This document shows, in pieces, positions 8,169 to 10,871 of a DNA stretch of 64,000 nt (positions are counted from its first letter, which is position 1; each line of letters starts with the position of its first letter). The stretch is from Mucilaginibacter sp. GTDB lineage: Bacteria > Bacteroidota > Bacteroidia > Sphingobacteriales > Sphingobacteriaceae. Both the position numbers and the translations under genes were made by a program. The notes under the pieces were generated by a model. It did no database searches, had not been told where the DNA came from, and saw nothing but the letters and a program-made list of their open reading frames with translations. The DNA is taken from NCBI GenBank assembly GCA_025352225.1, contig JANXTT010000024.1, forward strand, positions 1-64,000. The letters are read 5' to 3'.

Positions 8169-8918
8169 ATGGCAACAACAAAATTGCATAAACCTCAGTT
8201 TCCTGATCTTACAGATAACAGGCAACCCATTAATATAGAACTACCCGAACGCCTTGCTTCAGTTGCGTTGGGTACTAAAATGGCATTCTCCGGGCTTTTT
8301 AGGTTATTTAAGAGCCCTTTGCTTAGTGTAATAAAGGTGTTTGCCGGTGGGTACCTGGTACAACGCGGCGTTACGGGCCATTGCGAAGTTTATGCCAAGA
8401 TTGGCAAAACAACCATCGATCCGGTTAACGTGAATATCAGATATACTTTTACTGTTAATCGCCAGCGTCAGGATGTGTACGATTTTTGGCGCAAGCTGGA
8501 AAACCTGCCATTATTTATGAGCCACTTGGAAAACATAGAGGCTATTGATAATATCCGCTCGCACTGGGAGGCTAAAATACCCGGCAACATTGGTAACATA
8601 AGCTGGGATGCCGAAATTGTGAAAGATGAGCCCGGTTATTTTATTGGCTGGCAATCGTTACCGGGATCAACTATTGATAATGCCGGTAAAGTTGAATTTG
8701 AGGATGCTCCCGGCTATCAGGGTACTATAGTTAAGGTAGTTATCAGCTACCTGCCACCTGCGGGCGGTTTTGGCGCAGGCATTGCCAAACTACTTAATCC
8801 ATTATTTGAAAAAGTAGTGCGCGAAGATGTACTGAACTTCAAAAACTATATCGAAGCCATTCCAGATCAAAATACCGAAGCAGAAATAACGATCATCACT
8901 ATAGATACAGATATGTAG
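8169..8918 (+). CDS. DUF2892-like N-terminus plus SRPBCC/cyclase-dehydrase-like protein
   Basis: ERLASVALGTKMAFSGLFRLFKSPLLSVIKVFAGGYLVQRGVTGHC, then SRPBCC-like VYDFWRKLENLPLFMSHLENIE. Confidence 0.75.
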   Translation: MATTKLHKPQFPDLTDNRQPINIELPERLASVALGTKMAFSGLFRLFKSPLLSVIKVFAGGYLVQRGVTGHCEVYAKIGKTTIDPVNVNIRYTFTVNRQRQDVYDFWRKLENLPLFMSHLENIEAIDNIRSHWEAKIPGNIGNISWDAEIVKDEPGYFIGWQSLPGSTIDNAGKVEFEDAPGYQGTIVKVVISYLPPAGGFGAGIAKLLNPLFEKVVREDVLNFKNYIEAIPDQNTEAEITIITIDTDM

Positions 8919-9041
8919 GCATAGCCGGCGATTATAAATAATGGTCATTAAATATCGCATTGCTATGTTTAATTGACCATTTCCTTTTTTTTATACTGAC
9001 AACCAATCAACTTGTAAAAGCTACCAAATAAAAACCATCCT

Positions 9042-9359
9042 ATGTCTTTTGATCAATACCACGAACCTGTAAATGAATTATCCGACGAAACCAGAACGTT
9101 TGCCCGAATGATCGTCTCGCTTACCGAAGAAGCTGAAGCTATTAACTGGTACGAGCAACGCATATCGGTAGAAAAAGACCCTGATGCTAAAGCCATTATG
9201 CAAAATGCGCAAAACGAAGAGTTTAAACATTTTGGTATGGACCTGGAGTTTCTGCTCCGCAAAAAACCAATATGGCAAAAAACATTAAAAGCAATCCTGT
9301 TCACCTCAGGTGATATTGTTAAGCTGGGCGAAAAAGGCGAACACGAGGCTGAGGGTTAA
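9042..9359 (+). CDS. Encapsulated-ferritin-like (EncFtn) family protein
   Basis: SLTEEAEAINWYEQRI...DPDAKAIMQNAQNEEFKHFGMDLEFLLRK...ILFTSGDI matches the EncFtn pattern (ELEAVDWYxQR...DEEKEHAAMxLEWLRR...LFTEGPI), with E and ExxH ligands kept. Confidence 0.8.
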   Translation: MSFDQYHEPVNELSDETRTFARMIVSLTEEAEAINWYEQRISVEKDPDAKAIMQNAQNEEFKHFGMDLEFLLRKKPIWQKTLKAILFTSGDIVKLGEKGEHEAEG

Positions 9360-9497
9360 TTAATATCAAGGCGCTAGTATCAGGAAAAAGCCTGGTAATT
9401 TCTGTTTTGATGCTTAAATTAAGCATTCGCTATGCAATATTAAAACAGATAAACGCCTTAAACTTTGCCTGCTACTCTTTTCTAAATTAGTAAACGC

Positions 9498-9509: not shown

Positions 9510-10871
9510 ATGTCCGTAACTTTCGAAGATTTTGACTTTAACCGGCAGGTTTTAAATGCCATTGCCGATGCCGGTTATACCGAAGCTACGCCTATCCAGC
9601 AAAAAGCTATTCCACCTATCATGAACGGGCAGGACGTTATGGGTATCGCACAAACAGGTACCGGTAAAACCGCTGCCTATATGCTGCCCATCATCATGAA
9701 GCTAAAGTACGCGCAAGGTAACGATGCCCGGGCCATAGTAATAGCCCCCACGCGCGAACTGGCATTGCAGATAGAAGAGAACGCCCGCACGTTTGCCAAA
9801 TACACCGACTTGCGTATTGTGTCGTTATACGGCGGCCTGGGGCCCAAAACCCAAAAAGAGCTGATGGATAAAGGGGTTGATATTATTGTAGCCACCCCCG
9901 GCCGTTTTATGGACGTGTACCTTACCGGCCATATGGTAACCAAGCACCTGCAAATATTAGTGCTTGACGAAGCTGATAAGATGATGGATATGGGCTTTAT
10001 GCCGCAGATCAACCGGATACTGGAAGTTGTTCCGCGTAAGCGGCAGAATATGCTTTTCTCGGCAACCATGTCTGATAAAATTCAGAACCTATCGTTCAAT
10101 TTCCTGGAGTTTCCAACCGTTATTGAGGTTACCCCACAAGCAACCCCGGCTCAAACGGTAAATCAAACGTTGTATCATGTGCCCAACATGAAAACAAAGA
10201 TTAACCTGTTGAAGAAACTGCTGGATGCTCCGGATGATATTAAAAAACTGATCATATTTTGCAAAACACGTGTTGCCGCCGAGGATGTGTACAAGTTTTT
10301 GCTGCGCAAGTTTGGCGAAACAGAAGTACGGGTTTTACACGCTAATAAAGGGCAAAACACCCGTATTAACTCCATGAACGCGTTTAAAAACGATGAGGTT
10401 AAAATTTTGGTGGCTACTGATGTGGCATCGCGCGGCATTGATGTGAGCGACGTGAGCCATGTAATTAATTTTGACGTGCCCGTTGTTTACGAAGATTATG
10501 TGCACCGCATAGGCCGTACCGGCAGGGCATTCCAATCGGGCGAGGCTATTACTTTTTGTAACCCCGCCGAAGAATATTACATTCGGAAGATAGAAAAACT
10601 TATCCGCCAACCAATTCCTGTTGTACTTTTGCCTGCCGATGTATTTGTTGATGAAACGCCATACAATGAGCGCCAGGATCAGGATAAAGAAATAGATTTG
10701 CAAAAACGTAAAGAAGACCCCACCTTTAAGGGAGCCTTCCACGAAAAAAAGACCATGAACCAGCGCAAAAAATTTGATGCTGCAAAGGGGAAAACAACAA
10801 AAACAGCAACGCGCAACAACAGGCCTGGTAAAAAAGCGGCAGCGCAAAAAGAGAATAGAAAACGACGTTAA
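9510..10871 (+). CDS. DEAD-box ATP-dependent RNA helicase (RhlE-like)
   Basis: Q motif, AQTGTGKTAA, PTRELALQI, VLDEADKMMDMGF, SAT, HRIGRTGRA; basic C-terminal tail. Confidence 0.95.
   Translation: MSVTFEDFDFNRQVLNAIADAGYTEATPIQQKAIPPIMNGQDVMGIAQTGTGKTAAYMLPIIMKLKYAQGNDARAIVIAPTRELALQIEENARTFAKYTDLRIVSLYGGLGPKTQKELMDKGVDIIVATPGRFMDVYLTGHMVTKHLQILVLDEADKMMDMGFMPQINRILEVVPRKRQNMLFSATMSDKIQNLSFNFLEFPTVIEVTPQATPAQTVNQTLYHVPNMKTKINLLKKLLDAPDDIKKLIIFCKTRVAAEDVYKFLLRKFGETEVRVLHANKGQNTRINSMNAFKNDEVKILVATDVASRGIDVSDVSHVINFDVPVVYEDYVHRIGRTGRAFQSGEAITFCNPAEEYYIRKIEKLIRQPIPVVLLPADVFVDETPYNERQDQDKEIDLQKRKEDPTFKGAFHEKKTMNQRKKFDAAKGKTTKTATRNNRPGKKAAAQKENRKRR

What the first reader, a model, noticed from the sequence alone, without database searches (positions are those of the whole stretch)
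9042..9359. Orphan encapsulated-ferritin (EncFtn) gene with no encapsulin shell in sight
The protein keeps the EncFtn pattern (EEAEAINWYEQR; NEEFKH; ILFTSGDI), including the metal-ligand Glu and ExxH positions. EncFtn family members are typically encoded beside, or fused to, an encapsulin shell and carry a C-terminal cargo-loading peptide. Here the neighbours are an SRPBCC protein and a DEAD-box helicase, and the tail (LGEKGEHEAEG) does not resemble a loading peptide. It may be a shell-free ferroxidase or use another partner.
Basis: partly seen in the sequence, partly recalled or inferred. Interest (0 to 1): 0.62.

Follow-up and report, generated by a model that had tools for sequence, protein, structure and literature searches.

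The report
Shell-free relative of encapsulated ferritin
This small gene makes a ferritin-like iron-oxidising protein of a type usually packed inside a protein shell, but here and in over a hundred related genomes it stands alone without shell or packing tag, and it belongs to a well-separated branch of that family whose iron exit site has been rewired.

Summary
Window 9042-9359 (+) encodes a 105-aa EncFtn-like protein (Pfam PF22277, 6.5e-26; AlphaFold2 model matches EncFtn crystal chains at 1.1-1.3 A). All ferroxidase and entry-site ligands are kept. No family 1, 2A or 2B encapsulin was found in its genome. The tail lacks a cargo-loading peptide (0 of 115 homologues have the consensus).

The context reading is partly right. 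Being shell-free is normal for this protein: only 2 of 119 genome entries with a close homologue have a family 1 encapsulin, and in the one of those two inspected the shell's neighbour is a DyP peroxidase with its own tag. The SRPBCC pairing is unique to this window. Shell-free relatives (NE0167; "Non-EncFtn"/"s-FLP") were already recognised.

New here: the gene belongs to a strongly supported clade (100/100) across about ten phyla and on conjugative plasmids. The outer-rim site His57/Glu61/Glu64 of EncFtn, proposed as the iron exit/mineralisation site, is replaced by Asn/Glu/Lys almost without exception. Other shell-free groups keep His/Glu/Glu.

Best reading: a free cytosolic di-iron ferroxidase/redox protein, probably decameric, that does not store iron. 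Activity is untested.

The parts
9042..9359 (+). EncFtn-like protein, 105 aa, clade D in this report; FOC ligands E30, Y37, E60, H63; entry site E29, E32; outer site N55/E59/K62
9324..9356 (+). codons 95-105, C-terminal tail LGEKGEHEAEG: part of a predicted helix (92-104), no [LF]x[VI]xx[LI] loading consensus
8919..9041 (+). upstream intergenic region (123 bp); lacks the AAACAAA element and the start-codon hairpin seen upstream of many Mucilaginibacter homologues
9378..9397 (+). terminator-like stem-loop after the gene; consistent with a single-gene unit but weak (3 such sites found in the region against 2.0 expected)
8169..8918 (+). SRPBCC/polyketide-cyclase-like protein with YgaP-like TM domain; neighbour only, pairing not conserved
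9510..10871 (+). DEAD-box RNA helicase; neighbour only

Best explanation
The gene encodes a free (not encapsulated) member of the EncFtn-like two-helix ferritin family. Two chains pair to form a four-helix bundle with a symmetric di-iron ferroxidase centre (E30, E60, H63, with Y37 nearby), and such dimers probably form the D5 decameric ring seen in EncFtn and NE0167. Ferrous iron enters through E29/E32 and is oxidised, consuming O2 or H2O2. The product is not mineralised in the protein, because an open ring has no cavity, and in this clade the outer His/Glu/Glu rim that would receive Fe(III) is converted to Asn/Glu/Lys. It therefore works most likely as a small cytosolic iron/peroxide detoxifier or di-metal redox enzyme rather than an iron store. 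It stands as its own one-gene unit and spreads horizontally. Shown: fold, ligand conservation, lack of loading peptide, lack of shell, clade membership, rim substitution. Inferred: dimer/decamer, metal identity, activity, physiological role.
For: Family and fold: pLDDT 93.6; Foldseek prob 1.00, rmsd 1.1-1.3 A to 3k6c, 5n5f, 5da5. Ligands near-invariant in 119 homologues. Outer site N55 in 114/119, E59 in all that have a residue there, K62 in 117/118, against H/E/E in encapsulated (A) and other shell-free (B, C) groups; the one exception carrying H and E in that set is L117, an encapsulin-linked protein. Clade D monophyletic at 100/100, 98 rows. Encapsulin absent in 34/34, 50/50 and 33/35 genome entries. 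Tail lacks the loading consensus in 115/115. No conserved neighbour. Recombinant EncFtn without shell oxidises iron but does not store it (PMC5012862).
Against: No activity or oligomer data are known to me for any clade D protein. NE0167, also shell-free, keeps the outer rim, so rim loss is not simply a consequence of lacking a shell. The K62 substitution and the very long stem branch could mean a changed function rather than ferroxidase. Only a monomer could be modelled.
Confidence: 0.68

Rival explanations
1. It is still a cargo, loaded into a shell not recognised by the searches (a family 2-4 or unknown HK97-fold shell) through its conserved acidic tail.
For: The tail is conserved (E100 in 117 of 119 rows, the other two gapped). 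6 of 34 Sphingobacteriaceae genomes with the gene have a family 2B encapsulin elsewhere. PMC11202242 argues short FLPs could in principle be encapsulated.
Against: The own genome has no family 1, 2A or 2B shell. Most clade D genomes lack family 1. No conserved neighbour that could be a shell. The tail is modelled as a helix, unlike the extended loading peptide.
Confidence: 0.08
2. It is a repurposed di-metal protein of the EncFtn fold (for example a Mn/Fe oxidase, peroxide reductase or metal sensor/chaperone) and not a ferroxidase in the ferritin sense.
For: The outer exit site is converted with charge reversal in the whole clade; long stem branch. On alphaproteobacterial plasmids it sits among CusA/CzcA, P-type ATPase, CDF, MbfA and cytochrome b genes. 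Classical ferritin co-occurs in most genomes that have it.
Against: Every FOC and entry-site ligand is retained, and the fold is superposable on active EncFtns.
Confidence: 0.2
3. It acts with the upstream SRPBCC protein as a two-gene unit.
For: Same strand, 123-bp gap.
Against: No relative of the SRPBCC protein occurs beside any other homologue; only the window's own locus hits.
Confidence: 0.02

Closest known systems
NE0167 of Nitrosomonas europaea (PDB 3k6c), 's-FLP' / 'Non-EncFtn'
   Same: Short (95 aa), EncFtn fold, same FOC and entry ligands, no loading peptide; 47% identity in the structural alignment; 9 Pseudomonadota genomes with this type also lack family 1 encapsulin
   Different: NE0167 type mostly ends in YLFTxKPIAHx and keeps His/Glu/Glu at the outer rim; it forms a separate clade
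R. rubrum EncFtn Rru_A0973 (5da5) and H. ochraceum EncFtn (7oe2/5n5f), encapsulated FLP-TP
   Same: Fold and ferroxidase/entry ligands
   Different: These are cargo of a family 1 encapsulin and carry a long C-terminal extension with a loading peptide; the window protein lacks shell, extension and peptide
EncB/EncC of Myxococcus (NF058679 family; 7s5c, 7s5k, 7s8t)
   Same: Same superfamily of encapsulated ferritin-like proteins
   Different: Much weaker similarity (NF058679 45.5 bits against a cut-off of 90; 7s8t E=1.2e-4)
Classical ferritin / Dps (PF00210)
   Same: Four-helix di-iron ferroxidase chemistry (by analogy, PMC5012862)
   Different: Two-helix half-ferritin, no cage; own genome has no detected PF00210 member

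Membership tests
EncFtn-like (Pfam PF22277) | Profile score above the curated cut-off | tested here: met
   90.4 bits against 27
EncFtn-like (Pfam PF22277) | Two-long-helix EncFtn monomer fold | tested here: met
EncFtn-like (Pfam PF22277) | Glu32, Glu62, His65 and Tyr39 (Rru numbering), ExxH, and entry Glu31/Glu34 | tested here: met
   E30, E60, H63, Y37, E29, E32; near-invariant in 119 homologues
EncFtn-like (Pfam PF22277) | Outer-rim metal site His57/Glu61/Glu64 (seen in R. rubrum EncFtn; not used by Pfam to define the family) | tested here: not met
   N55/E59/K62 in the window and in the whole clade
EncFtn-like (Pfam PF22277) | Annular decamer | not testable with these tools
   single-chain prediction only
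Encapsulated ferritin cargo (FLP-TP; TIGR04535) | TIGR04535 curated cut-off | tested here: not met
   99.3 bits against 125
Encapsulated ferritin cargo (FLP-TP; TIGR04535) | C-terminal loading peptide [LF]x[VI]xx[LI] | tested here: not met
   0 of 115 clade members; 2 of 3 encapsulin-linked controls match, the third (L117) has a looser LNIGKM
Encapsulated ferritin cargo (FLP-TP; TIGR04535) | Encapsulin shell encoded nearby or in the genome | tested here: not met
s-FLP / Non-EncFtn (NE0167 type) | Short EncFtn without loading peptide and without shell | tested here: met
   but in a separate clade from NE0167

The most novel reading that the evidence does not exclude
Clade D is a functionally new branch of the EncFtn-like family: a widely transferred, never-encapsulated di-metal redox protein in which the iron exit/mineralisation rim has been replaced by Asn/Lys, so that it oxidises iron or reduces peroxide without ever depositing mineral; in part of Mucilaginibacter its start codon is locked in a covarying hairpin that regulates it.
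Probability: 0.3. Interest if true: 0.6.

Novelty: new variant of a known kind. Interest (0 to 1): 0.42.

Why it matters
EncFtn is described as needing a shell because it oxidises iron but cannot store it. A large, strongly supported and horizontally mobile clade that has kept the ferroxidase centre but has neither shell nor exit rim makes the question 'what does an EncFtn do without a compartment?' directly testable. It also warns that annotation as 'encapsulin-associated' by family name would be wrong for these genes. In the window's genome it is the only detected member of the ferritin/EncFtn set (no PF00210 hit).

Tried and rejected
SRPBCC pairing: rejected. Conserved metal-handling neighbourhood in Bacteroidota: rejected; immediate neighbours are unrelated (biotin synthase-like, riboflavin synthase-like, MFS transporter-like and others, named from sequence by eye), and metal-resistance context appears only on some alphaproteobacterial plasmids. 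Replacement of classical ferritin by this protein: strong ferritin hits are missing in 9/25 Mucilaginibacter genomes with the gene against 7/44 without, Fisher p=0.077 (my cut between ferritin-strength and Dps-strength hits at about E=1e-28 was chosen after seeing the data). Suggestive only, and most genomes have both. Phage origin: no match in phages. Upstream hairpin as a known Rfam family: no credible hit.

Full report
WHAT IS THERE. The window carries an ATG-to-stop ORF of 105 codons at 9042-9359 on the + strand. It is a clear member of Pfam EncFtn-like PF22277 (6.5e-26). Its closest solved relatives are all EncFtns: N. europaea NE0167 3k6c, R. rubrum 5da5, H. ochraceum 7oe2/5n5f. An AlphaFold2 model from an alignment of the window protein with homologues (A3; mean pLDDT 93.6) superposes on these chains at 1.1-1.3 A. 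Single copy in the genome.

LIGANDS. Using the alignment to R. rubrum EncFtn (Rru number = window number + 2), the ferroxidase ligands Glu32, Glu62, His65 and Tyr39 are E30, E60, H63 and Y37, and the entry-site Glu31/Glu34 are E29/E32. Across 119 homologues these are invariant or nearly so. Assignments of site roles come from PMC5012862.

A CHANGED OUTER SITE. In R. rubrum EncFtn, His57, Glu61 and Glu64 bind metal on the outer rim and were proposed as exit portal and mineralisation site (PMC5012862). In the window protein they are N55, E59 and K62. Asn is found at 55 in 114 of 119 homologues and Lys at 62 in 117 of 118; the exception that has His and Glu is L117, which is encapsulin-linked. 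NE0167-type and a third short type (L138-L142) keep His/Glu/Glu although they have no family 1 shell in their genomes either. So the change marks this clade, and is not just what happens when a shell is absent.

PHYLOGENY. A maximum-likelihood tree of 112 proteins puts the 98 window-type rows in one group at 100/100, separated by a long branch from encapsulated (A), NE0167-type (B) and third short-type (C) proteins. Few columns are available, so inner forks are unsure. The clade spans Bacteroidota, Pseudomonadota, Gemmatimonadota, Verrucomicrobiota, Acidobacteriota, Chloroflexota, Actinomycetota and others; some of these are MAGs that could be mis-binned, but isolates (Pontibacter, Flavisolibacter, Mesorhizobium) and plasmids confirm several phyla. 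Of the seven plasmid records with a match, four are typed conjugative; three of those were opened. Horizontal transfer is likely.

SHELL. No family 1 encapsulin above the cut-off in the window's genome; family 2A none; family 2B only the cyclic-nucleotide-binding part. In 301 family genomes, 34 have the gene and 1 has family 1 encapsulin, with no overlap. In 50 further genomes reached through homologous loci 0 have encapsulin, and in a third set 2 of 35 (G690, G710). Some species may be counted in more than one set. In G690 the encapsulin sits beside a DyP-peroxidase-like ORF (named from its sequence by eye, not by a profile search) ending in LGIGSLKK, a canonical loading peptide; G710 was not inspected. 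Positive controls: both Pseudomonadota genomes with tagged EncFtn have the shell next door. Six of 34 Sphingobacteriaceae genomes with the gene carry a family 2B shell, but not the window's. Families 3 and 4 were not tested.

TAIL. None of 115 clade members has [LF]x[VI]xx[LI] after residue 90. The tail is acidic and modelled as a helix.

CONTEXT. No neighbour is conserved. The SRPBCC gene of the window has no relative beside any other homologue. Immediate neighbours in Mucilaginibacter are varied and unrelated to metal or redox. On Rhodopseudomonas and Bradyrhizobium plasmids the gene lies among CusA/CzcA, P-type ATPase, CDF, MbfA and cytochrome b genes, which hints at metal handling. The window's genome has no PF00210 ferritin/Dps hit while all 14 controls do, and 279 of 301 family genomes do. 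Lack of strong ferritin is more common among Mucilaginibacter with the gene (9/25 against 7/44) but not significantly (p=0.077).

MECHANISM. Best-supported: a free EncFtn-fold ferroxidase or di-metal redox protein that oxidises Fe(II) (O2 or H2O2 as oxidant) and does not store iron. Shown: fold, ligands, shell and tag absence, rim change, clade. Inferred: oligomer, metal, activity, role. Support by analogy: EncFtn without its shell is an active ferroxidase that does not accrue mineral (PMC5012862).

KNOWN BEFORE. 'Non-EncFtn' (PMC5012862) and 's-FLP' (PMC11202242) already describe EncFtn-like proteins without encapsulin or tag. I found no paper naming the present clade in the searchable library; subscription papers are not covered. 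The plasmid copies that carry an annotation are called 'hypothetical protein'.

SIDE FINDING. Upstream of many Mucilaginibacter homologues there is AAACAAA about 45 nt before the ATG, then an inverted repeat whose 3' arm often includes the ATG itself. Own arms pair better than swapped arms (mean -6.9 against -3.9 kcal/mol; 0 of 20000 permutations; 0 of 20000 in a 35-sequence thinned set); homologues without the motif show no such effect. 14 of 30 EncFtn-like genes against 7 of 222 other genes in the same loci show such a stem. Relatedness is not fully controlled. The window's own copy lacks it.

Noticed in passing
L054:5946-6003, L071:5946-6003, L057:5946-6003, L065:5946-6003 and similar loci (not in the window): Inverted repeat ending in the start codon of the EncFtn-like gene in about half of Mucilaginibacter homologues, with compensating arm changes and an invariant AAACAAA about 45 nt upstream; not in Rfam; could be an RNA switch hiding the start codon or a DNA-level element.
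   Followed up: partly
whole genome G000: No PF00210 ferritin/Dps hit at E<=0.01 in a 97.3% complete genome, whereas 279 of 301 family genomes have one.
   Followed up: partly
L114, L115, L116 (Rhodopseudomonas/Bradyrhizobium conjugative plasmids): Copies of the gene annotated as hypothetical protein inside metal-resistance islands (CusA/CzcA, P-type ATPase, CDF, MbfA, cytochrome b).
   Followed up: partly
L138-L142 (Pseudomonadota genomes G954, G895, G709, G655, G898): A further short EncFtn-like group (95-105 aa) with no loading peptide and no family 1 encapsulin in the genome, distinct from NE0167 and from the window's clade.
   Followed up: partly
L113 (G292): The only family 1 encapsulin among 301 family genomes, next to a transposase-like ORF; no EncFtn or other obvious cargo gene in the stretch held.
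   Followed up: no
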